Assembly (NCBI GenBank): GCA_022509205.1
Contig: JAFLTR010000009.1
Location: 1-56,978 of the forward strand
Direction of reading: 5' to 3'
Length of the DNA stretch: 56,978 nt
DNA from: Muribaculaceae bacterium
GTDB taxonomy: Bacteria > Bacteroidota > Bacteroidia > Bacteroidales > Muribaculaceae
How positions within the stretch are numbered: the stretch's first letter is position 1; each line of letters starts with the position of its first letter. Both the position numbers and the translations under genes were made by a program. Below the pieces are notes generated by a model, which saw nothing but the letters and a program-made list of their open reading frames with translations, had not been told where the DNA came from and searched no databases. Below are positions 46,172 through 55,047 of this stretch, piece after piece.

Positions 46172-46882
46172 ATGATTGATTTTGGAATCATAGCGGCCGG
46201 CGATGGCAAGAGGATAATGCAGGAAGGGTCTCCCTTCCCTAAGCCATTGGTGGAAATTGAAGGCAAACCGATGATAGGCCGGCTCATCGAATTAATGGAG
46301 GAGGCCGGGGCTCGCTCTGTCAGTATAGTTGTGAATGAGGATATGACTCGGGTGATTGAGTATCTGCAGGAATTCCTGCCATCGGCAAAATGTGAACTCA
46401 AATTCGAGTCAATAAAAACTCCCTCTTCTTTTCATAGTTTCTACCGAATCATGCAACTGATGAAGCCGACCGGTAAATTCATTGTTGCCACAGTAGATTC
46501 TGTCTGCCGGGCTGAAGATTTCAAGAATTATGTCGACTACTTTCTCAATGTCCCCCATGGCATCGACGGAGTTATGGGAGTCACCACTAATATTGATGAT
46601 GAAAAACCTCTCTATGTCGAGACAGAGGGCCGGCATCGGATAGTGGCCTTCCGCGATGAGGCTTTCGACGGGGTGAAATATGTTAGTGCCGGATATTACG
46701 GACTTCAGACATCAGTCTTTCCCATTCTTCAGGAGTGTGTGACACAAAATGTGAGCCGGATGAGAAATTTCCAAAGGAAACTTTTGGAACAAGGTCTGAA
46801 TCTTGATGCTTTCCCGATGGGGAAGGTGGTGGATGTAGATCATCTCGACGATATCGCGAAAGCCAATTCGATTCTTGGATGA
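46172..46882 (+). CDS. Sugar/polyol-phosphate nucleotidyltransferase
   Basis: A 236-residue NTP-transferase fold enzyme that activates a phosphorylated sugar or polyol. I start at the ATG at 46172 (MIDFGIIAAGDGKRIM); the frame is open into pdxA, but the upstream part is out-of-frame pdxA sequence. The nucleotide loop AAGDGKRIM and the PKPLVEIEGKPMI segment (residues about 25-37) are the family signature; ATVDSVC near 110 takes the metal-site position. It overlaps the ATP-grasp gene by 4 nt. In this context a good candidate reaction is CTP plus inositol phosphate giving CDP-inositol, but other sugar phosphates are equally possible from sequence alone. Confidence 0.75.
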   Translation: MIDFGIIAAGDGKRIMQEGSPFPKPLVEIEGKPMIGRLIELMEEAGARSVSIVVNEDMTRVIEYLQEFLPSAKCELKFESIKTPSSFHSFYRIMQLMKPTGKFIVATVDSVCRAEDFKNYVDYFLNVPHGIDGVMGVTTNIDDEKPLYVETEGRHRIVAFRDEAFDGVKYVSAGYYGLQTSVFPILQECVTQNVSRMRNFQRKLLEQGLNLDAFPMGKVVDVDHLDDIAKANSILG

Positions 46883-47733
46883 GCCTTAAGATCCTTGCCA
46901 TATCGAGGGCACCGAAGTTTTCTCCGGGAAACGTGGAGAATGATGCTGCCATCTTGAGAGAAGTGGCTGATTGTCTCACTCGGGAAGGACATGATCTTAA
47001 ACTTATCTCGGAGGAGGAATTCCTTAAGTTTCCGACTGATTGCAAGGTCATAATCAATATGTGCCGTGGAGAAGACTCTGTAAGGAAACTCCGGCAGTTG
47101 GAGAAAGAAGGTTGCATCGTTATAAATTCAACTCAAGGAATAGAAAACAGCAGAAGAAAAAATATGACGAGGCTTATGGAGCGGGCCGCAATCCCTTCTG
47201 CCGACAATATCCTGTTGAGCCGTGAAAATCTGTCCGTTATTCCTGGAGATGAAAATTGGAGCCCATCGGTAAAGCGGCTTTTGGAAAAACATGAGATAGA
47301 AAAGTGCTGGATAAAAAAGGGTGACGGCTACACCACTGATAAAAATGACATCTGCTTCTGCAACAATCCTGCAGAGGTAGAAGCAGCACTCAGGGAAATG
47401 TTTGAGAGGGGGGAAGAGGGAGCTATTCTAAGCAGACATATAGAGGGAGACCTTGTAAAGTTTTATGGAATCGCCGGTCAACCCTTTTTCCATTGGTATT
47501 ATCCGGAAGGAGGTCAGAATAAATTTGACGTAAAAGAATTAGAAGCTACATCAAGTATGCTTGCAAAGATATTCGGGCTGACAATCTACGGAGGCGATTG
47601 TATAGTGAGGGAGGATGGATCGTATGCAGTCATAGATTTCAATGACTGGCCAAGTTTCAAGGTTTGCAGGGAGGAAGCGGCCCCTCATATTACGGCTGCA
47701 ATAATTTCAGAGATTAAGACCCGTATCCCCTAA
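46879..47733 (+). CDS. ATP-grasp enzyme of unknown substrate
   Basis: A 284-residue protein with ATP-grasp architecture: an N-terminal Rossmann-like part (KILAISRAPKFSPGN), the region IINSTQGIENSRRKNM near residues 80-95, WIKKGDGY near 138 (ATP-lysine region), AILSRHIEGDLVKFYGI near 178, and the metal-binding end YAVIDFNDWPSF near 253. ATP-grasp enzymes ligate carboxylates to amines or phosphorylate sugars and inositols. It lies between a nucleotidyltransferase (4-nt overlap) and a CDP-alcohol phosphatidyltransferase (18-nt gap), so its substrate is probably the same head group. No family name can be given. Confidence 0.72.
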   Translation: MSLKILAISRAPKFSPGNVENDAAILREVADCLTREGHDLKLISEEEFLKFPTDCKVIINMCRGEDSVRKLRQLEKEGCIVINSTQGIENSRRKNMTRLMERAAIPSADNILLSRENLSVIPGDENWSPSVKRLLEKHEIEKCWIKKGDGYTTDKNDICFCNNPAEVEAALREMFERGEEGAILSRHIEGDLVKFYGIAGQPFFHWYYPEGGQNKFDVKELEATSSMLAKIFGLTIYGGDCIVREDGSYAVIDFNDWPSFKVCREEAAPHITAAIISEIKTRIP

Positions 47734-47751
47734 CCCATTTTTTTCTAAAAG

Positions 47752-48717
47752 ATGTCGGATAAGCTACCCAGTAAGAAGAATCGAGGCGGATATAGGGATT
47801 CATTGAAGTCGATGGACACTGAAGAGACCTTCGACCTGCTATTCTACCGGCCTATCGGCTATCTGCAGGCAATCGGAGCTCATAAACTTGGGATAACACC
47901 CAACGCTATAACCATCTTTTCAATTTTCCTGGGAATAGGTTCGGGAGTCTGCTTTTATTTCAAAGATTTATGGATAAATCTGGCCGGAGTGTTCCTTTTA
48001 GTGTGGGCTGATTCTCTCGACAGCGCCGACGGTCAGTTGGCCAGAATCACAGGTCAGTATTCCCGTTTGGGAAGGATACTCGACGGTATCAGCAGTGAAA
48101 CCTGGTTTATTTCAATTTATTTCTTCATCTGCCTTCGGGAAACGCTGACACCCGGATTTTTTCATACATACTGGTGGTCGATATGGGTGTTTGCTGCCAT
48201 CACCGGATTTTTCCACGCATGGCAGGCTTCGATGGCCGATTATTACCGGCAATTCCATCTTTTCATGCTGAAGGGAAAAGACGGGAGTGAACTTGAGGAC
48301 TCGGCAAAACCTCTATGGGAAAAATTTCATGCTCTCTCCTGGAGAAAAAATTTCTTTCAGAAAGGGATGCTGATGTTTTATGCCGATTACACTGAGACAC
48401 AGCAGAAACGCACTCCCTGGATGCAGAAATTACGTAGGGCATTGAGGGAAAAATACGGCAACGATATCCCCCGAAGTTTCCGTGAGGCGTTTCGCAAGAA
48501 GAGTCTCCCCTTGATGAAATATACAAATATCCTTAGCTTCAACACCCGAAGTTTCGCCCTTTTTGCCGCTATTCTTATTTTTCAGCAGCCATGGCTCTAT
48601 TTTGCTTTCGAATGCACCGTGCTCAACCTTGTGCTCGTCTATATGATGTTGAGACACGAGAGGATTTGCCGATATTTCATAAATCAACTCGACAAAGAGG
48701 CCGGCAGACAGGATTGA
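47752..48717 (+). CDS. CDP-alcohol phosphatidyltransferase, paralogue 1
   Basis: A 321-residue integral membrane enzyme joining a CDP-activated alcohol to an acceptor alcohol. The signature DxxDGxxARx8GxxxDxxxD is seen at residues 90-111: D90, D93, G94, A97-R98, G107 and D111. The last acid of the consensus (position 115) is Ser, with Glu116 one residue later. Several hydrophobic segments span the rest. It is a clear paralogue of the protein at 52773: both have TPNxITIxSIFLG near the first helix and a WRKNFFQK/WKRNFFQK stretch. Substrates are unknown; the CDP-polyol made by neighbouring cytidylyltransferases is likely. Confidence 0.85.
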   Translation: MSDKLPSKKNRGGYRDSLKSMDTEETFDLLFYRPIGYLQAIGAHKLGITPNAITIFSIFLGIGSGVCFYFKDLWINLAGVFLLVWADSLDSADGQLARITGQYSRLGRILDGISSETWFISIYFFICLRETLTPGFFHTYWWSIWVFAAITGFFHAWQASMADYYRQFHLFMLKGKDGSELEDSAKPLWEKFHALSWRKNFFQKGMLMFYADYTETQQKRTPWMQKLRRALREKYGNDIPRSFREAFRKKSLPLMKYTNILSFNTRSFALFAAILIFQQPWLYFAFECTVLNLVLVYMMLRHERICRYFINQLDKEAGRQD

Positions 48718-48722
48718 GTGTT

Positions 48723-48754
48723 GTTGCATTTTATCCAAACTGTCTGTATCTTTG
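48723..48754 (+). promoter_or_regulatory. Promoter of the HAD hydrolase gene
   Basis: GTTG (48723-48726), 20 nt, TATCTTTG (48747-48754). The -7 box is exact and the -33 has one mismatch. The ATG is 27 nt downstream. Confidence 0.6.
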
Positions 48755-48781
48755 TTATAACATAAAGCTAACATTAGAATT

Positions 48782-49492
48782 ATGGGAATAAAAGGAATAA
48801 TACTGGATTTTGGAGGCACTCTCGACACCGGAGGCGACCATTGGAGCACAGTGATCCGTGACGGGTGGAATAAAGCAGGAGTTGTAGCGGATGATGCTCT
48901 TTTCAGGGAAGCATACGTTTTCGGGGAACAAGGCATGGAAAAAGCATTGAATATATTGCCTACCCACACTTTCTCCGATATCCTGAACATGAAACTGCAG
49001 CTGGAATTGCAATATCTTGCCCAAAACGGCCATTTCCCCCCGCAACAGATACAGCCTAAGGCTGCGGAGATTGCAGAATACTGCTACGGAGTGGCAAAAG
49101 AGGAAACCGCTAAGATCATCCCGATTCTTGAAGAATTGGAGAAAAAATATCCTATGGTGATGGTTTCCAATTTCTATGGGAATTTAGACACAGTGCTTGA
49201 AGAGTTCGGGTTGTCAAAATTATTTAAGAAAGTGATAGAAAGTGCAAAGGTAAAAGTAAGAAAACCTGACACTGCTATCATGCAACTTGGAATAAAGGCA
49301 CTTGGCATGCAGCCCGCGGAGGTGCTGGTGGTAGGCGACAGTATTAAAAACGATATTGAGCCGGCAAAAAAATTAGGATGCCACACCCTTTTGCTGAACG
49401 GAAGAAAATGGGGAGAGGATGGTCTCACCGATGAGGAGATCGATACAATTGAAAACCTTGATGAAATATTAGGCTTCCTGGAGATTATGTAA
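48782..49492 (+). CDS. HAD-superfamily phosphatase-like hydrolase
   Basis: A 236-residue cytoplasmic protein. Motif I is LDFGGTLD (Asp9), where the second acidic residue of DxD is Gly11, a variant found in some HAD proteins. Thr/Ser motif II lies near VMVSNF, motif III Lys in VRKPD and motif IV is VGDSIKNDI near residue 184. A cap domain is inserted at about 15-90. In this cluster it could dephosphorylate a phosphorylated head group or lipid intermediate, as in phosphatidylinositol-phosphate pathways, but the missing second Asp means phosphatase activity is not certain. Confidence 0.78.
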   Translation: MGIKGIILDFGGTLDTGGDHWSTVIRDGWNKAGVVADDALFREAYVFGEQGMEKALNILPTHTFSDILNMKLQLELQYLAQNGHFPPQQIQPKAAEIAEYCYGVAKEETAKIIPILEELEKKYPMVMVSNFYGNLDTVLEEFGLSKLFKKVIESAKVKVRKPDTAIMQLGIKALGMQPAEVLVVGDSIKNDIEPAKKLGCHTLLLNGRKWGEDGLTDEEIDTIENLDEILGFLEIM

Positions 49493-49542
49493 GAAACTTA
49501 AAACCGCAAAGTGGTCTAAGCATGAAGGCATAATCAAAAGAT

Positions 49543-49573
49543 TTTGAGAGTTGGGGAATAATTTTTAAATTTG
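49543..49573 (+). promoter_or_regulatory. Promoter of the cytidylyltransferase-dehydrogenase-epimerase operon
   Basis: TTTG (49543-49546), 19 nt, TAAATTTG (49566-49573), a full consensus match. A 9-bp hairpin (GGGGAGACC at 49581-49589 with GGTCTTCTC at 49597-49605) starts at about the predicted transcript 5' end and may protect it. Confidence 0.85.
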
Positions 49574-49626
49574 CGATGTAGGGGAGACCGTAAAATGGTC
49601 TTCTCTGCCCTTTTAATTTTCAGGCT

Positions 49627-50349
49627 ATGAAAAACACTGGGAGTCGAATAGCTGTGATATTGGCAGGAGGCACCGGCACGCGAATGGGGCACAAGCTGCC
49701 AAAACAATATATCGAGGTGGATGGCGAACCAATCATCCACTATACATTGCTACCCTTTATTAAAAGCGGACTTTTTGAAAATGTGGTGGTTTGTGCCGAT
49801 GACCTCTGGCACGATTATATACTCGAACATTTACCCCAAAATGCAGAGACCGCTAACAGGAAAATATCCCTCACTTTTTCACGACCGGGAGAGACGCGCC
49901 AACTCACAATCTTTAACGCGCTGAAAAAGATTAAAGAAGAATTCCCTGATTGTAAAGAAGTCCTGATTCACGATGCGGCACGACCTTTGGTTACTATTGA
50001 TCTGCTATCAAGATGCATTGAGGGACTAAAGGAGACTGACGGTGTGCTTCCGGTGGTGAAAGTAAAAGACACCATCTATCAATCGCACGACGGGAAAGAT
50101 ATCGATTCACTCCTTGACCGCTCCACATTATACGCGGGCCAATCACCTGAATCCTTCAAATTTTTACCATATCTTCACGCACATCTTGAATCCTCAGAAA
50201 AAGAGCTCATGAAAATCAACGGGAGCTCTGAATTAGCTATGCTCAAGGGTATGAAAGTGGGGATGATTCCGGGAGAGGAAGACAACTTTAAGATCACTAC
50301 CCGTGAAGACCTTGAAAGATTCAAGCAGTTTTTAGAGAGCAACCGTTGA
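49627..50349 (+). CDS. IspD/TarI-family cytidylyltransferase
   Basis: A 240-residue enzyme moving CMP from CTP to a polyol phosphate. Segments are LAGGTGTRMGHKLPKQY near residues 12-28, HDAARPLV near 118, VKVKDTIYQ near 145, and GEEDNFKITTREDL near 218. The family includes IspD (methylerythritol phosphate, isoprenoid pathway) and TarI/Bcs1 (ribitol phosphate). The DRSTLYAGQSPESF stretch and NFKITT look closer to the TarI branch by eye, and the following dehydrogenase and epimerase genes favour CDP-ribitol or another CDP-pentitol. A housekeeping IspD role cannot be excluded. It is first in an operon with a strong promoter. Confidence 0.72.
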   Translation: MKNTGSRIAVILAGGTGTRMGHKLPKQYIEVDGEPIIHYTLLPFIKSGLFENVVVCADDLWHDYILEHLPQNAETANRKISLTFSRPGETRQLTIFNALKKIKEEFPDCKEVLIHDAARPLVTIDLLSRCIEGLKETDGVLPVVKVKDTIYQSHDGKDIDSLLDRSTLYAGQSPESFKFLPYLHAHLESSEKELMKINGSSELAMLKGMKVGMIPGEEDNFKITTREDLERFKQFLESNR

Positions 50350-50418
50350 AAAAATGGAACAATAAAACTGCACTCCATGATAGAACCAGAGTCAAAGGGG
50401 ATGAAAGAACGGAAAAAG

Positions 50419-51462
50419 ATGAAAGCAAACAGATTATACGGCATAAAGGATTTGAGGTTCGAAGAGGTTGACATGCCCGAGCTTAAGGAGGATGAAGTCC
50501 TCGTAAAGGTAAAGGCTTGCGGAATATGCGGCTCGGATGTCAATAGATATTTCACAAGCGGCACATATCATTATCCCACTATCATAGGCCATGAGTTCTC
50601 CGGAGTAGTGGCAGGAGTGCAAAATAAAGAGGATGAACCCCTCTTAGGACAACGAGTGGGAGTATTTCCCTTGAAACCATGTTTCAGTTGTGATCAATGC
50701 AAGAAAGGCAACTATGAATTATGCAGCCATTATGATTATTTGGGTTCGAGGTGCGACGGGGGATTCGCGGAATATGTGGCTGTGCCCAAATGGAATCTAA
50801 TAAAACTTCCGGAAAAAGTGACCTTTAAAGAGGGGGCAATGCTTGAACCGGCATCTGTAGCCCTTCATGTTTTAAAGAGATTGGATGATCTCGAAGGGGA
50901 AAATGTTTTGATCACAGGACCCGGTCCAATCGGTATCATCCTGGCCAAACTTGCTAAAATAAAAGGAGCCGCAAAAGTAATTTTAGTGGGTCGTTCAGAT
51001 GATAAGTTGACATTTGCCAAACAACATGGAATAGAATTTACGCTCAACAGCAATGATGGGGAATTTGACTCCAAATTAAATGCAATCACGGAAGGAAAGG
51101 GATTTAAGTTTGGACTTGAAGGGACAGGGGCATCGAGTTGCATTGAAATGATTCTCGACCGTATCAATGCAGAGGGCTCGGTAGTGCTTTATGGGAACCC
51201 TCATGGCGATATTGCCATCCGGAAAGATTCCTATTGGAAAATCTTGCGAAAGCAATTAATTTTACAGGGCACCTGGAATTCCTCTTTCGGTGGAGAAAAG
51301 AATGACTGGAAAGAGATATTAGATTTGATAGACCGGGGTCGGTTGAAAATTTCAGACCTTATCACCCATACCTTGCCGCTTGAAGGGCTGCTCGAAGGGC
51401 TTCAGAAGATGAACGACACAGATTGTTTCACGTGTAAAGTAATGATCACAGAGGATGACTGA
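50419..51462 (+). CDS. Zinc-dependent polyol(-phosphate) dehydrogenase
   Basis: A 347-residue medium-chain dehydrogenase. The start ATG 50419 (MKANRLYGIKDLRFEEV) fits the family; open ATGs at 50377 and 50401 add charged residues without family likeness. Catalytic zinc ligands lie in ACGICGSD and IGHEFSG (residues about 33 and 55), structural zinc cysteines in CFSCDQCKKGNYELC near 87-101, and the Rossmann loop is GPGPIGIILA near 163. It resembles galactitol/sorbitol-type and TarJ-type reductases. Next to a CDP-polyol cytidylyltransferase it would reduce ribulose-5-phosphate to ribitol-5-phosphate, or a related ketose phosphate (inference). It overlaps the epimerase by 8 nt. Confidence 0.78.
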   Translation: MKANRLYGIKDLRFEEVDMPELKEDEVLVKVKACGICGSDVNRYFTSGTYHYPTIIGHEFSGVVAGVQNKEDEPLLGQRVGVFPLKPCFSCDQCKKGNYELCSHYDYLGSRCDGGFAEYVAVPKWNLIKLPEKVTFKEGAMLEPASVALHVLKRLDDLEGENVLITGPGPIGIILAKLAKIKGAAKVILVGRSDDKLTFAKQHGIEFTLNSNDGEFDSKLNAITEGKGFKFGLEGTGASSCIEMILDRINAEGSVVLYGNPHGDIAIRKDSYWKILRKQLILQGTWNSSFGGEKNDWKEILDLIDRGRLKISDLITHTLPLEGLLEGLQKMNDTDCFTCKVMITEDD

Positions 51463-52132
51463 ACGTAAGAATAAAATATCGGCCTCAATAATGTGTGCAG
51501 ATCTGCTCAACCTCTCGGGACAAATCAAAGAACTTGAGGAATCCGGGATAGATATGCTTCATATCGACATAATGGATGGTTCGTTTGTGCCGAATCTGAC
51601 CTTTGGGCCCGACTTTGTTAACGCAATCAAGAAGATAACAAAGTTGCCTCTGGATATCCATCTGTTGATGGACCATCCAAGGGTGATTTTACGGTCGATG
51701 AATTTTGACAGCAGAGACATTGTCACCATCCACGCCGAATGTAAGGAAAGCATAATGGAGAATGCAGCATTTGTGAAGCAAAGAGGGGCACGCTTCGGAC
51801 TTGCCCTTAACCCTGACAGCTCCATTGAAGAGATAAAGAAATACTTGCCATATATCGATGTAGTGCTCTTGATGCTCATCATACCCGGGTTCGCGGGTAG
51901 TTCTCTGATCCATGGTATAATGGAAAAGGTAGGAGAGACAAGAAGATTTCTCGACACTCACCATTTCGATAATATAGAGATTGCGGTGGATGGGAGCGTA
52001 AGCCCGGAGAGAGCCAGATATATGAGAGATCTTGGAGCCACAATATTTGTGGGTGGCACAGCAGGTATATTTAAAAAAGAAAAGGCATTGAAGGAAACGG
52101 TAAAGAATTTTAATTTGCAGATAAACGATTAG
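51455..52132 (+). CDS. Ribulose-phosphate 3-epimerase family protein
   Basis: A 225-residue TIM-barrel epimerase. Metal and catalytic residues are visible: the start ISASIMCADLLNL, HIDIMDGSFVPNLTFGPDF near residue 36, DIHLLMDHP near 69 and AVDGSVS near 178. The usual SVxPGFGGQ loop reads LIIPGFAGSS, so specificity may differ from housekeeping Rpe. It would supply ribulose-5-phosphate (from xylulose-5-phosphate) to the neighbouring dehydrogenase, or epimerise another ketose phosphate. The 8-nt overlap with the dehydrogenase argues for a shared pathway. Confidence 0.8.
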   Translation: MTERKNKISASIMCADLLNLSGQIKELEESGIDMLHIDIMDGSFVPNLTFGPDFVNAIKKITKLPLDIHLLMDHPRVILRSMNFDSRDIVTIHAECKESIMENAAFVKQRGARFGLALNPDSSIEEIKKYLPYIDVVLLMLIIPGFAGSSLIHGIMEKVGETRRFLDTHHFDNIEIAVDGSVSPERARYMRDLGATIFVGGTAGIFKKEKALKETVKNFNLQIND

Positions 52133-52162
52133 GATACCGCGGAAAATAGTTGAAGAGTTCTG

Positions 52163-52705
52163 ATGAATTTTTTTGCCAAGATAGCAAATAATTTAGTCCA
52201 CAGCGAGAATTTAGCCTACACAGCGATACGTTCGACGATATCGGCACAATTTTCGGGATGGCTTGATTTTGCCACAGCCTTTGCAATGTTTTCCTGGGTG
52301 GGACTGAGACCTGTGTATGCCACTGCAATCGGTGCAGTGGTAGGGGGATTGTCTAACTGTTTCATCAATTATAAATTCACCTATCCGAATCAGGCTTGTG
52401 CCTGGAATATCGTGATCATCAAATTTTTCATGGTGTGGCTTGGCGCAGTATTGCTCAATTCATTCGGCACTCAATTGCTCTACGGATTATTGACAAAATG
52501 GACGTTCCTTGCAGAGATAGGTTTTAAACCCGACGGATATTTCACTGCAGCCCGACTCTCTACAGCTCTTATTGTATCTGTGTTCTGGATATTCCTATTG
52601 CAGAAAAACTTTGTGTATAAACAAGTTTCATTCGATAAATACGCTGAAAAAATATCTGATTTTCTATTCCCGTCGATACTCAAGCAAAAGAGTAAAAACT
52701 TTTGA
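52163..52705 (+). CDS. GtrA-family membrane protein
   Basis: A 180-residue protein with four hydrophobic segments (about 35-50, 55-75, 85-110 and 135-160), the usual GtrA topology. SNCFINYKFTY near residue 68 matches the conserved NFxxNRxWVF-like segment loosely. GtrA proteins are thought to flip or handle polyprenyl-phosphate sugars in cell-surface glycan and lipid modification. Placement between the epimerase and a phosphatidyltransferase supports a role in exporting the CDP-polyol-derived product (inference). Its start follows the epimerase stop by 30 nt. Confidence 0.75.
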   Translation: MNFFAKIANNLVHSENLAYTAIRSTISAQFSGWLDFATAFAMFSWVGLRPVYATAIGAVVGGLSNCFINYKFTYPNQACAWNIVIIKFFMVWLGAVLLNSFGTQLLYGLLTKWTFLAEIGFKPDGYFTAARLSTALIVSVFWIFLLQKNFVYKQVSFDKYAEKISDFLFPSILKQKSKNF

Positions 52706-52731
52706 AAACATATCTTAATTATGTAAATTTG
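52701..52731 (+). promoter_or_regulatory. Promoter of phosphatidyltransferase 2 / inositol phosphate synthase operon
   Basis: TTTG (52701-52704), 19 nt, TAAATTTG (52724-52731), a full match overlapping the end of the GtrA gene. The leader that follows contains two hairpins, TTGCACG/CGTGCAA (52729-52750) and ACGTC/GACGT (52751-52764). Confidence 0.85.
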
Positions 52732-52772
52732 CACGGTAATAAACGTGCAAACGTCTTATGACGTAATATTGT

Positions 52773-53708
52773 ATGCTAAAAAATATAAAAGAAGAATATA
52801 GCAAATCGATAAAATCATTTGACACGGAGGAAAATTATGACCTCTGTTTCACTCGACCGGTAGGTTTTGCCTGGGCTCTATTTTTCCGCAAAATAAAAGT
52901 GACCCCGAATGTCATCACCATTATCTCGATATTTCTTGGAGTGGCCGGGGGAATCTGCTTTTATTTCCCTAATCTATACATAAACATTGCAGGCATACTG
53001 CTGTTGGTGTGGGCCGGAATTTACGATTGCACCGACGGTATGCTGGCACGCCTGACGGGCCAGAAATCAGAACTTGGAAGATTTCTTGACGGCATAGCCG
53101 GTGATTTCTGGTTTGTGGCCATATATCTGTCGATTGTGTTGCGTTCCAACAACGACATCACCTTTTTTAGCGATCATAAATGGATATTATGGATAGGGAT
53201 GGCGGCAGCAGCCATCTGCCATAGCGCCCAGGCCGCAGTGGCCGACAGGTATCGCCAGATGCATCTTTTGATTGTGAACGGTTCGAGTGGCAGTGAGCTG
53301 GATTCCTACGACGTGCTCAAAAAAAGATATCATAGCCTAAACTGGAAAAGAAATTTTTTCCAAAAACTATATCTGTTCTTATATTCAAATTATACAGGGC
53401 TCCAGGAACGTCTGTCGCCTAAAATGGAGGCTCTTTATCAAGTGTGGGGTAAGAAATATCCTAATTTCCAACTTCCCGCTGAACTGAGGCAAGAATTCAG
53501 AATGATGAGTTTCCCGTTTTGTAAATGGGAAAACTTTATGACATATAATTGGCGGGCACTGTTTCTCTACACCACTGTGTTGATTGGATATCCATGGGTC
53601 TATCTACTTGTCGAGCTGACTATTTTTAATGTAGTATTGGTTACGACAGTGGCCAATCATGAGAAAACATGTGCAAAGATGATGCAGATACTTGAAAAAC
53701 ACGACTGA
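52773..53708 (+). CDS. CDP-alcohol phosphatidyltransferase, paralogue 2
   Basis: A 311-residue membrane enzyme of the same family as the one at 47752. The motif is D85, D88, G89, A92-R93, G102 and D106. The consensus last acid position (110) is Gly and Asp111 is one residue later, the same one-residue shift as in paralogue 1. Hydrophobic segments start near residues 44, 70, 112 and 135. It has its own promoter and is followed 4 nt later by myo-inositol-1-phosphate synthase, so inositol (phosphate) is the most likely head group: it could make a phosphatidylinositol-type lipid. Confidence 0.87.
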   Translation: MLKNIKEEYSKSIKSFDTEENYDLCFTRPVGFAWALFFRKIKVTPNVITIISIFLGVAGGICFYFPNLYINIAGILLLVWAGIYDCTDGMLARLTGQKSELGRFLDGIAGDFWFVAIYLSIVLRSNNDITFFSDHKWILWIGMAAAAICHSAQAAVADRYRQMHLLIVNGSSGSELDSYDVLKKRYHSLNWKRNFFQKLYLFLYSNYTGLQERLSPKMEALYQVWGKKYPNFQLPAELRQEFRMMSFPFCKWENFMTYNWRALFLYTTVLIGYPWVYLLVELTIFNVVLVTTVANHEKTCAKMMQILEKHD

Positions 53709-53712
53709 CGCT

Positions 53713-55047
53713 ATGACACAATGCAAATCTAATACCAAAGGCAAAACTTCGGGAGTGCAGCCCGTTCAAGGGAAACTCGGAGTGATGGTGGTAGGTCTCG
53801 GGGCTGTAGCCACGACTTTCATCAGCGGTGTGTTTTTGGTCAGAAAGGGTCTCGGCAAACCCATCGGGGCAATGACTCAGTATGACAGGATCCGGGTGGG
53901 TGAAGGCTCCGATGAGCAGCACCTGATGTATAGGGATATCGTGCCCTTGGCGTCGCTCGACGATCTTGTATTCGCTGCATGGGATCCATATCCGGCTAAT
54001 GCTTTCGAATCAGCCATCAATGCCGAAGTTCTGAGGGCAAAGGATCTGCTAAAGGTGCAGAAAGAACTTGAAGCCATCCGTCCTCTTCCGGCAGCATTCG
54101 ACAAGGATTATGTGGCCCGAATCGATGGCGACAATGTCAAAGCCGTGAAAGACCGTTGGGATATGACGAATCAGATTCGTGAAGATATCCGGAAATTTAA
54201 AGAGGATAACGGACTGGAGCGTGTCGTGGTGCTATGGGCTGCATCCACGGAGGTGTATGTGCCTGTCGATATGGAAGTGCACGGCACTTTGCAGTCTCTG
54301 GAAGAGGCCATGAAGAAGGACAACAAAGCCTTGATTCCCCCGTCGATGTGTTATGCCTACGCTGCCATAGCTGAGGGTTGTCCCTTTATAATGGGCGCTC
54401 CCAACACCACTGTGGATATACCGGCAATGTGGGAATTTGCCGAAAAGATGAGAGTGCCGATCGCCGGCAAAGACTTCAAGACCGGACAGACGCTGGTGAA
54501 GTCGGGATTCGCTCCCATACTGGGTGTGAGATGCCTGGGCCTCGAGGGCTGGTTCTCCACCAATATCCTCGGAAACAGAGACGGACTTGTGCTTGACGAG
54601 CCGGCAAATTTCCGCACAAAGGAGGTGAGCAAACTTTCCACCTTGGAAAGCATCCTTATGGCAGACAATCAACCGGATCTCTATTCAGATTATTACCATA
54701 AGGTCAGAATAAACTATTATCCTCCGAGGAAAGATAATAAGGAAAGTTGGGATAATATCGATATTTTCGGCTGGCTGGGCTATCCTATGCAGATAAAGAT
54801 TAATTTCTTGTGTAGGGATTCTATACTTGCCGCCCCTGTCTGTCTTGACCTGGTGCTTCTCATAGATATGGCTCAGAGAGCGGGTAATTACGGCATTCAA
54901 CGTTTCTTGAGTTTCTTCCTCAAGAGCCCGATGCACGATTACAGAGAGAAAGAAACCCCGGTCAACAATCTCTTCCAGCAATATATAATGCTCAAGAATG
55001 AATTGAGAAGACTGGGAGGATATAAGGCCGACGAACCTCTGGATTAA
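53713..55047 (+). CDS. ino1: myo-inositol-1-phosphate synthase
   Basis: Converts glucose-6-phosphate to inositol-1-phosphate with NAD in the cytoplasm. I use the ATG at 53713 (444 residues), 4 nt after the preceding stop; an ATG at 53692 overlapping it is an alternative. Visible features are the NAD loop [17 protein letters not shown] near residues 25-41, [16 protein letters not shown] near 228, and the active-site [10 protein letters not shown] near 253 with lysines in place. The short bacterial form of the family is expected. Its presence with two CDP-alcohol phosphatidyltransferases marks an inositol lipid pathway. trmD overlaps its stop by 1 nt. Confidence 0.94.

What the first reader, a model, noticed from the sequence alone, without database searches (positions are those of the whole stretch)
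46172..55047. CDP-polyol and inositol head-group cluster with two activation branches and a duplicated phosphatidyltransferase
Seen: a nucleotidyltransferase, ATP-grasp enzyme, CDP-alcohol phosphatidyltransferase, HAD hydrolase, then an IspD/TarI-like cytidylyltransferase, polyol dehydrogenase, ribulose-phosphate-epimerase homologue, GtrA protein, second phosphatidyltransferase and inositol-1-phosphate synthase, all on one strand. Known: gut Bacteroides carry inositol-lipid clusters built on inositol-1-phosphate synthase and a CDP-alcohol transferase. Inference: this version adds a CDP-pentitol branch and a possible CDP-inositol branch, so it may build a lipid or lipid-linked glycan with both an inositol and a pentitol, or two lipids. 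I do not recall this combination being described.
Basis: partly seen in the sequence, partly recalled or inferred. Interest (0 to 1): 0.85.

Follow-up and report, generated by a model that had tools for sequence, protein, structure and literature searches.

The report
Exchangeable head-group module in lipid operon
A gut bacterium's inositol-lipid operon carries an inserted set of genes that probably builds a second membrane lipid with a different sugar-alcohol head, and some relatives carry different sets there, as if lipid heads could be swapped like capsule sugars.

Summary
Half is known: nucleotidyltransferase (NTP), CDP-alcohol phosphotransferase (PT1), HAD and inositol-phosphate synthase (MIPS) form the 'alternative' inositol-lipid cluster of Heaver 2022. 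The new half is a block between HAD and MIPS: TarI/IspD-like cytidylyltransferase, Zn dehydrogenase, ketose-phosphate epimerase, GtrA and a second phosphotransferase, PT2. One same-genus relative lacks it, one keeps GtrA-PT2 with a different cytidylyltransferase plus SDR, one has a heptose-activation set there. Similar IspD-epimerase sets lie in capsule loci beside CDP-polyol transferases. PT residue 86 is Ser in 169 of 175, Cys in 5, Gly in 1; three Cys cases lack an NTP in the locus, two share it with PT1. A Parabacteroides PT beside a TagD-like cytidylyltransferase, checked afterwards, has Cys. Best reading: PT2 attaches polyol phosphate from a CDP-polyol to a lipid, beside the inositol branch. 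'Pentitol' is unproven; a hexitol is possible. The exact block was seen only here. Nothing is tested biochemically.

The parts
46172..46882 (+). NTP: small nucleotidyltransferase, proposed inositol-1-phosphate cytidylyltransferase (CDP-inositol)
   Evidence: PF12804/PF00483 over cut-off; weak similarity to NF041135, 35.4 bits against cut-off 580; same kind of gene in Heaver's alternative cluster
46879..47733 (+). ATP-grasp/RimK-like protein, conserved member of the core cluster, role unknown
   Evidence: TIGR00768 33.5 bits, cut-off 143.4; found beside PT1 in many relatives
47752..48717 (+). PT1: CDP-alcohol phosphotransferase of the inositol branch
   Evidence: PF01066 46.1 bits; same position in relatives; tree
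48782..49492 (+). HAD hydrolase of the core cluster
   Evidence: PF00702 64.7 bits
49627..50349 (+). TarI/IspD-family cytidylyltransferase, proposed CDP-polyol synthase
   Evidence: PF01128 138 bits; best PDB matches 2vsh, 3f1c, 6xhp, 4jis (the last two are labelled ribitol-5-phosphate cytidylyltransferase, the TarI nature of the first two is recalled); clade with the capsule-locus copy of G524, apart from the clade of the housekeeping copy
50377..51462 (+). Zn-dependent polyol-phosphate dehydrogenase (start uncertain, 50377 or about 50419)
   Evidence: PF08240/PF00107; closest solved relative galactitol-1-phosphate 5-dehydrogenase 4a2c
51455..52132 (+). ketose-phosphate 3-epimerase, RPE/AlsE family
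   Evidence: PF00834 165.4 bits; RPE 133.1 and AlsE 131.6 bits among PDB matches; AlsE-like loop motifs
52163..52705 (+). GtrA-family membrane protein, possible flippase of the product
   Evidence: PF04138 33.3 bits; 72% identical GtrA next to PT2 in G562
52773..53708 (+). PT2: second CDP-alcohol phosphotransferase, proposed CDP-polyol:lipid phosphotransferase
53713..55047 (+). [quoted passage not shown] ORF open from 53692
   Evidence: PF07994 330.1 bits; only match in the held genome, 88% complete

Best explanation
The locus is the ordinary Bacteroidales 'alternative' inositol-lipid operon (NTP, ATP-grasp, PT1, HAD, MIPS) into which a second head-group module has been inserted between HAD and MIPS. 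In the module a ketose phosphate (ribulose/xylulose-5-phosphate, or fructose/allulose-6-phosphate) is set by the epimerase, reduced to a polyol phosphate by the Zn dehydrogenase, and activated to a CDP-polyol by the TarI-like enzyme. PT2, a paralogue of PT1, then transfers the polyol phosphate from the CDP-polyol to a lipid alcohol (diacylglycerol or dihydroceramide) in a Kennedy-type reaction, and GtrA may move the product across the membrane. PT1 does the same with CDP-inositol. The cell would make two phospho-lipids with different polyol heads, and the module is exchangeable between species. Shown: gene content, insertion, cassette swap between sister species, kinship of the IspD-epimerase type with capsule loci, residue pattern. 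Inferred: every substrate and product.
For: (1) The same-genus genome G069 has rlmN-pdxA-NTP-ATPgrasp-PT1-HAD-MIPS-trmD with 363 bp between HAD and MIPS; the median HAD-MIPS gap over 79 locus rows, not deduplicated, is 284 bp; of 37 further genus loci HAD is followed directly by MIPS in 25, and in the other 12, where MIPS is not next or HAD is not recognised, no gene near the PT matched the IspD, dehydrogenase, SDR, epimerase or heptose queries. (2) The sister G562 has HAD-GtrA(72%)-PT2(75%)-IspD(31%)-SDR-MIPS at the same site; its IspD passes the NF001183 ribitol-5-phosphate cytidylyltransferase cut-off, 180.9 against 166. PT2 and GtrA are shared while the activation genes differ. (3) IspD-oxidoreductase-epimerase recurs in a capsule locus of the family member G524 (50/52/69% identity) with a Glyphos_transf gene nearby and in Parabacteroides distasonis (IspD 46%, an SDR 51% identical to the G562 SDR in place of the Zn dehydrogenase, epimerase 73%) beside two CDP-glycerol glycerophosphotransferases. 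IspD-SDR pairs elsewhere have a LicD match nearby in 11 of 17 genomes (four LicD confirmed by Pfam). In the window, G562 and G502 no LicD or Glyphos_transf match was seen near the IspD; a PT is there instead. (4) G502, of another family, has an independent PT-IspD neighbour pair with an IspD of another clade. (5) PT residue 86 is Ser in 169 of 175, Cys in 5 (window PT2, G562 PT2, G502, G052, L219), Gly in 1; G052 has no MIPS and no NTP match in its genome. Checked after the pattern was seen: a P. distasonis PT beside a TagD/ethanolamine-phosphate-type cytidylyltransferase has Cys86, and two NTP-paired PTs, one of them from the same P. distasonis strain, have Ser86. (6) PT2's predicted fold matches AF2299 and IPCT-DIPPS, the latter a CDP-inositol-using enzyme.
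Against: G781 has a PT2 relative (64-65%, Gly86) as its only PT match, in an otherwise inositol-type cluster with NTP and MIPS, so the PT2 lineage may still handle inositol. G052 has a Cys86 PT2 relative with no IspD beside it, so Cys86 came before the cassette in this lineage, and the window and G562 are not independent events. The lone PT of L219 also has Cys86 with no cytidylyltransferase match near. Many Ser86 PTs show no NTP in the fetched locus (42 of 145 PT loci had neither NTP nor IspD; many loci are short); the four such genomes tested (G088, G681, G672, G515) do have an NTP match elsewhere. The exact five-gene block was found only in G000. The cluster IspD, epimerase and NTP miss the curated equivalog cut-offs. 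Of 80 named PT loci none showed an IspD match. Whether G000 has LicD or Glyphos_transf genes elsewhere was not searched.
Confidence: 0.58

Rival explanations
1. The IspD-dehydrogenase-epimerase set makes a CDP-polyol for a capsule or other glycan polymer made elsewhere in the genome, and PT2 is only a second inositol (or other) phosphotransferase that happens to sit beside it.
For: The same kind of set sits in capsule loci of G524 and Parabacteroides distasonis; in G781 a PT2 relative is the only PT match, in an NTP-MIPS cluster.
Against: No LicD or Glyphos_transf in the ten genes; the sister G562 pairs PT2 with a different activation set at the same site; G502 shows an independent PT-IspD pair; PT2 has changed at motif positions 86 and 90 that are Ser and Gln in nearly all other PTs.
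Confidence: 0.22
2. One composite lipid: both branches act on the same molecule, for example PT2 adds polyol phosphate to an inositol lipid.
For: The module is inserted in the inositol operon rather than elsewhere, and MIPS follows PT2 by 4 bp.
Against: The cassette type also occurs outside inositol operons, and G052 keeps a PT2 relative with no MIPS or NTP match.
Confidence: 0.1
3. Roles reversed: PT2 makes the inositol lipid and PT1 handles the polyol.
For: PT2 is the PT next to MIPS, and G781 has a PT2 relative without PT1.
Against: PT1 holds the place between ATP-grasp and HAD that PT1 has in relatives and keeps Ser86; PT2 is absent from most of the genus (3 of 111 at E <= 1e-103).
Confidence: 0.07

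Closest known systems
Alternative inositol-lipid cluster of Bacteroides vulgatus / Prevotella (Heaver et al. 2022, PMC9246714)
   Same: NTP, CDP-alcohol phosphotransferase, HAD and MIPS in one cluster, proposed CDP-inositol Kennedy-type route
   Different: No IspD/TarI, epimerase or polyol branch is mentioned: ribitol, pentitol, TarI, epimerase and ATP-grasp have 0 occurrences in the main text
B. thetaiotaomicron BT_1522-1526 inositol-lipid cluster
   Same: MIPS and (recalled for BT_1524) a GtrA-family gene
   Different: The window cluster lacks the PIP-synthase, PgpA-like and PAP2/AUR1-like genes; PT1 and PT2 score 20.9 and 24.7 bits against a cut-off of 350 for NF052561
TarI/TarJ (CDP-ribitol) and Abp (CDP-arabinitol) cassettes of teichoic acids and capsules (known from recall and from passages of PMC4873967 and PMC10118250)
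   Same: IspD-family cytidylyltransferase plus polyol-phosphate dehydrogenase
   Different: Carries an epimerase and is followed by GtrA and a membrane CDP-alcohol phosphotransferase instead of a polymerase or LicD
IPCT-DIPPS (CDP-inositol) and AF2299 of Archaeoglobus
   Different: Low identity (18-21%), and the last Asp of the motif lies one residue later in the Bacteroidales group
Eukaryotic Kennedy pathway (CEPT1/CPT1)
   Different: Different cytidylyltransferase families and polyol heads

Membership tests
Heaver alternative inositol-lipid cluster | MIPS gene with NTP, CDP-alcohol phosphotransferase and HAD genes in its vicinity | tested here: met
Heaver alternative inositol-lipid cluster | produces inositol lipid through CDP-inositol | not testable with these tools
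   no biochemistry; the paper calls the functions unconfirmed
BT_1522-1526 type cluster | PIP synthase BT_1523 type (NF052561) | tested here: not met
   20.9 and 24.7 bits against cut-off 350
MEP-pathway IspD | passes TIGR00453 / NF001186 cut-offs | tested here: not met
   172.2 against 181.3 and 116.5 against 253; the housekeeping copy passes both
TarI ribitol-5-phosphate cytidylyltransferase | passes NF001183 cut-off | tested here: not met
   143.4 against 166; the G562 copy passes, 180.9
TarI ribitol-5-phosphate cytidylyltransferase | closest solved structures are TarI-type | tested here: inconclusive
   2vsh, 3f1c, 6xhp, 4jis rank above the other IspD entries; 6xhp and 4jis are so labelled, that 2vsh and 3f1c, deposited under MEP names, are TarI-type is recalled
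Ribulose-5-phosphate 3-epimerase | passes TIGR01163 equivalog cut-off | tested here: not met
   193.8 against 212.6; housekeeping copy 262.4; the broader subfamily NF004076 is met, 182.9 against 165
D-allulose-6-phosphate 3-epimerase | passes NF007266 cut-off | tested here: not met
   171.6 against 271; the housekeeping RPE scores 193.4 on the same model, so the score does not favour AlsE; only the loop motifs resemble 3ct7
CDP-alcohol phosphotransferase superfamily (PF01066) | Pfam cut-off | tested here: met
   PT1 46.1 and PT2 49 bits against 22
CDP-alcohol phosphotransferase superfamily (PF01066) | fold | tested here: met
CDP-alcohol phosphotransferase superfamily (PF01066) | motif with GX3DX3D, the last Asp at canonical spacing (motif as quoted) | tested here: not met
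   position 110 is Gly in 166 and Ser in 9 of 175; Asp one residue later in 162 of 175; so the canonical motif is not claimed, only homology by Pfam and fold

The most novel reading that the evidence does not exclude
Bacteroidales swap membrane-lipid head-group cassettes in a fixed chromosomal neighbourhood (after rlmN-pdxA) much as they swap capsule cassettes: a CDP-alcohol phosphotransferase is paired with different activation sets (NTP for inositol, IspD with dehydrogenase and epimerase, IspD with SDR, TagD-like with SDR, possibly heptose), yielding undescribed lipids such as phosphatidyl-pentitols or -hexitols; one active-site residue (Ser to Cys at 86) marks the switch away from inositol.
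Probability: 0.35. Interest if true: 0.82.

Novelty: new variant of a known kind. Interest (0 to 1): 0.62.

Why it matters
If true, gut Bacteroidales make phospho- or sphingo-lipids with linear polyol heads beside inositol lipids, and the head group would be encoded by an exchangeable cassette. It would also give a sequence marker for the head group of a large family of unassigned phosphotransferases and support the CDP-inositol route of Heaver 2022, because the phosphotransferase repeatedly sits beside a cytidylyltransferase of one family or another. A two-PT case in a named strain (Parabacteroides distasonis TSDC17.2-1.1) makes it testable by deletion and lipidomics.

Tried and rejected
Rejected: the idea that PT1 changed its active site (G110S, D111E) because PT2 took over. 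With 147 PTs the pair looked confined to the two double-PT genomes, but with 178 sequences (175 after collapsing at 97% identity) Glu111 also stands in single-PT relatives such as L274, L282, L284 and L301.

Rejected: GtrA as a pentitol-specific part. GtrA also sits with PgpA-like, PIP-synthase-like and PAP2 genes in relatives.

Rejected: IspD as the only MEP enzyme and the epimerase as the only RPE; separate copies exist.

Led nowhere: a viral-contig scan with the IspD protein found no relative. GC of the module genes (0.405-0.447) is only slightly below that of the neighbours (0.442-0.497), no clear foreign signal. Foldseek gave no match at E <= 0.001, best 1.5e-3; the second look with VIA-align was clear. 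Fisher's test on residue 86 (3 of 3 IspD-paired PTs against 3 of 144, P 3.9e-5) ignores the shared descent of the window and G562 copies and is given only as description. Of the five PT hits in plasmid records three were opened (H11, H13, H15), H12 and H14 not. MIPS and NTP elsewhere in G502 and in the genome of L219, and LicD/Glyphos_transf in G000, were not searched (genome search cap reached).

Dropped rows: 11 locus hits with an internal stop or unknown residue and 2 fragments were left out, and identical sequences were counted once. L122, a truncated copy of PT2, was left out of the tree. The PT-locus partner classes (100 NTP, 42 none, 3 IspD of 145) are limited by short loci.

Literature: names phosphatidyl-ribitol/-arabinitol/-xylitol: 0 papers in the held open-licence library; CDP-arabinitol/-xylitol/-arabitol: 1 (PMC10118250, passages read). 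Heaver 2022: section 10 read in full, other passages and outline. PMC10191378 and PMC4873967: passages. Other searches: listings only. None of these searches asked directly for phosphotransferases paired with different cytidylyltransferases.
Full report
What is there. The window is contig C94 of an unnamed 2.3 Mb genome. Its family includes a genome whose contig length equals that of Duncaniella muris DSM 103720, so it is Muribaculaceae (inference). Between pdxA and trmD lie ten genes on one strand: NTP, ATP-grasp, PT1, HAD, IspD-like, Zn dehydrogenase, epimerase, GtrA, PT2, MIPS. Intergenic gaps are -8 to 134 bp.

The known half. Heaver 2022 (PMC9246714, section 10 read) described an alternative inositol-lipid cluster (NTP, CDP-alcohol phosphotransferase, HAD, near MIPS) and proposed CDP-inositol plus diacylglycerol as the route, unconfirmed. 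PT relatives at E <= 1e-60 are in 324 of 397 family genomes and, by profile at E <= 1e-40, in 61 of 393 order genomes.

The inserted half. In the same-genus genome G069 the order is rlmN-pdxA-NTP-ATPgrasp-PT1-HAD-MIPS-trmD with 363 bp between HAD and MIPS (L047). Of 37 further genus loci HAD is followed directly by MIPS (no ORF of 110 aa or more between) in 25; in 3 HAD is present but MIPS is not next, and in 9 no HAD was recognised by PT1. Those 12 do not define the interval; no gene shown near their PT matched the cassette queries, but their other ORFs were not identified. Counting only genus loci where HAD and MIPS are both seen (the 25 plus G000, G562, G113, G781, G069, G086), 3 of 31 have an activation cassette between them: G000, G562 and G113.

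The cassette varies. G562 (L140) has GtrA (72%), PT2 (75%), an IspD of another clade (31%) and an extended SDR in that interval. G113 (L049) has a GH84 gene, a heptose kinase (3k85, 576.6 bits), a phosphoheptose isomerase, a nucleotidyltransferase fused to a heptose-bisphosphate-phosphatase-like HAD, a small CDP-alcohol phosphotransferase, GtrA and an acyltransferase. G781 (L141) has a PT2 relative there and no PT1. Among 111 genus genomes a PT2 relative at E <= 1e-103 is in 3: G000, G562, G781.

Where the cassette comes from. In 397 family genomes the IspD has one relative at 51%, in G524; the other rows listed at E <= 1e-23 are at 36% or less. In 393 order genomes the best identity listed apart from the window itself is 37%. 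In G524 the IspD-dehydrogenase-epimerase triad lies in a capsule-type locus (polysaccharide export, Wzz/AAA kinase-like, Polysacc_synt) with a Glyphos_transf gene. On a Parabacteroides distasonis record the order is IspD (46%), SDR (51% to that of G562), epimerase (73%), two CDP-glycerol glycerophosphotransferases, again with flippase and EpsG genes. So a Zn dehydrogenase and an SDR fill the same slot, and the G000 and G562 cassettes are plausibly equivalents (inference). IspD-SDR pairs elsewhere have a LicD match nearby in 11 of 17 genomes. [quoted passage not shown] In the window and G562 the candidate user in the locus is PT2.

The phosphotransferase. PT1 and PT2 are 44-45% identical. The tree puts PT1 among the phosphotransferases of the usual cluster and PT2 with G562, G781 and G052 on a long branch inside a second clade, other members of which sit beside a diverged NTP. 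Of 13 genomes with second-clade PTs given to (G052, G011, G020, G110, G089, G104, G626, G579, G637, G540, G653, G781, G562) 12 have MIPS, G052 not; G052 also has no NTP match. So the second clade as a whole is probably still inositol-linked and the change is in the subclade. The four subclade PTs have Met90 (Gln in the other 171 of 175), Gly82 (Asn or Asp in the other 171), Arg159 (Tyr in 154) and Cys or Gly at 86. At 86, Ser stands in 169 of 175 PTs, Cys in 5 and Gly in 1. The five Cys cases are window PT2 and G562 PT2 (IspD cassette; the locus NTP is shared with PT1), G502 (IspD next door), G052 (no NTP or MIPS match in the genome) and L219 (PT alone after pdxA, the rest of the cluster not found in the locus). 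After seeing this, three PTs outside the set were checked. The P. distasonis PT beside a TagD-like cytidylyltransferase (best PDB matches glycerol-3-phosphate and ethanolamine-phosphate cytidylyltransferases) and an SDR, after rlmN and pdxA, has Cys; NTP-paired PTs of the same P. distasonis strain and of Phocaeicola massiliensis have Ser. The PLSDB records used are called plasmids; two of them carry rplU or rlmN, pdxA and recF, so they are probably chromosome pieces (inference).

What remains open. Which polyol: the cassette epimerase has GFAG, VDGS and GTAG loops like 3ct7, the D-allulose-6-phosphate epimerase (alignment), where the housekeeping copy has GFGG, DGG and AGS, and the same loops are seen in the G524 and P. 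distasonis copies. That points to a hexulose phosphate as much as to a pentulose phosphate, although by model score neither family is met and the AlsE score is not higher than that of the housekeeping copy. The dehydrogenase is closest to a hexitol-phosphate enzyme. Which lipid: diacylglycerol or dihydroceramide, unknown. G781, G052 and L219 show that neither PT2 nor Cys86 is strictly tied to an IspD neighbour.

Verdict. The general pattern, phosphotransferases of one family beside at least three kinds of cytidylyltransferase, is the more interesting result; I saw no paper describing it in the searches listed under Tried and rejected, which cover open-licence papers only and did not ask for it directly.

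Noticed in passing
L049:436-8014: Same-genus genome G113 carries a heptose-activation gene set (heptose kinase, phosphoheptose isomerase, nucleotidyltransferase-phosphatase fusion) with a small CDP-alcohol phosphotransferase, GtrA and an acyltransferase in the HAD-MIPS interval.
   Followed up: partly
L314:5786-8719: Parabacteroides distasonis has, after rlmN and pdxA, a TagD-like cytidylyltransferase, an SDR, a CDP-alcohol phosphotransferase with Cys86 and an acyltransferase: a second head-group set in a named strain.
   Followed up: partly
L145, L196, L202, L278, L280 and others: Hybrid clusters hold both BT-type genes (PIP-synthase-like, PgpA-like, PAP2, GtrA) and PT1 of the alternative type; 10 of 37 genus loci. 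Heaver describes the two cluster types as alternatives.
   Followed up: no
window:47752-48717 and 52773-53708 and 173 relatives: The whole phosphotransferase group lacks the last motif Asp at canonical spacing; an Asp lies one residue later in 162 of 175 sequences.
   Followed up: no
L219:9968-10906: A PT1-like gene with Cys86 stands alone after pdxA; NTP, ATP-grasp, HAD and MIPS were not found in the locus.
   Followed up: partly
L116:11627-12632: An acyltransferase gene beside the capsule-type IspD-dehydrogenase-epimerase set is split over two overlapping frames.
   Followed up: no
window:22783-27710: Urease genes: UreD, UreG-like, UreF and the alpha subunit.
   Followed up: no
window:35672-37372: AAA ATPase with weak similarity to the anti-phage ATPase IteA (92.2 bits, cut-off 510).
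   Followed up: no
window:56092-56976: PD-(D/E)XK transposase-family gene running off the window just after the cluster and trmD.
   Followed up: no
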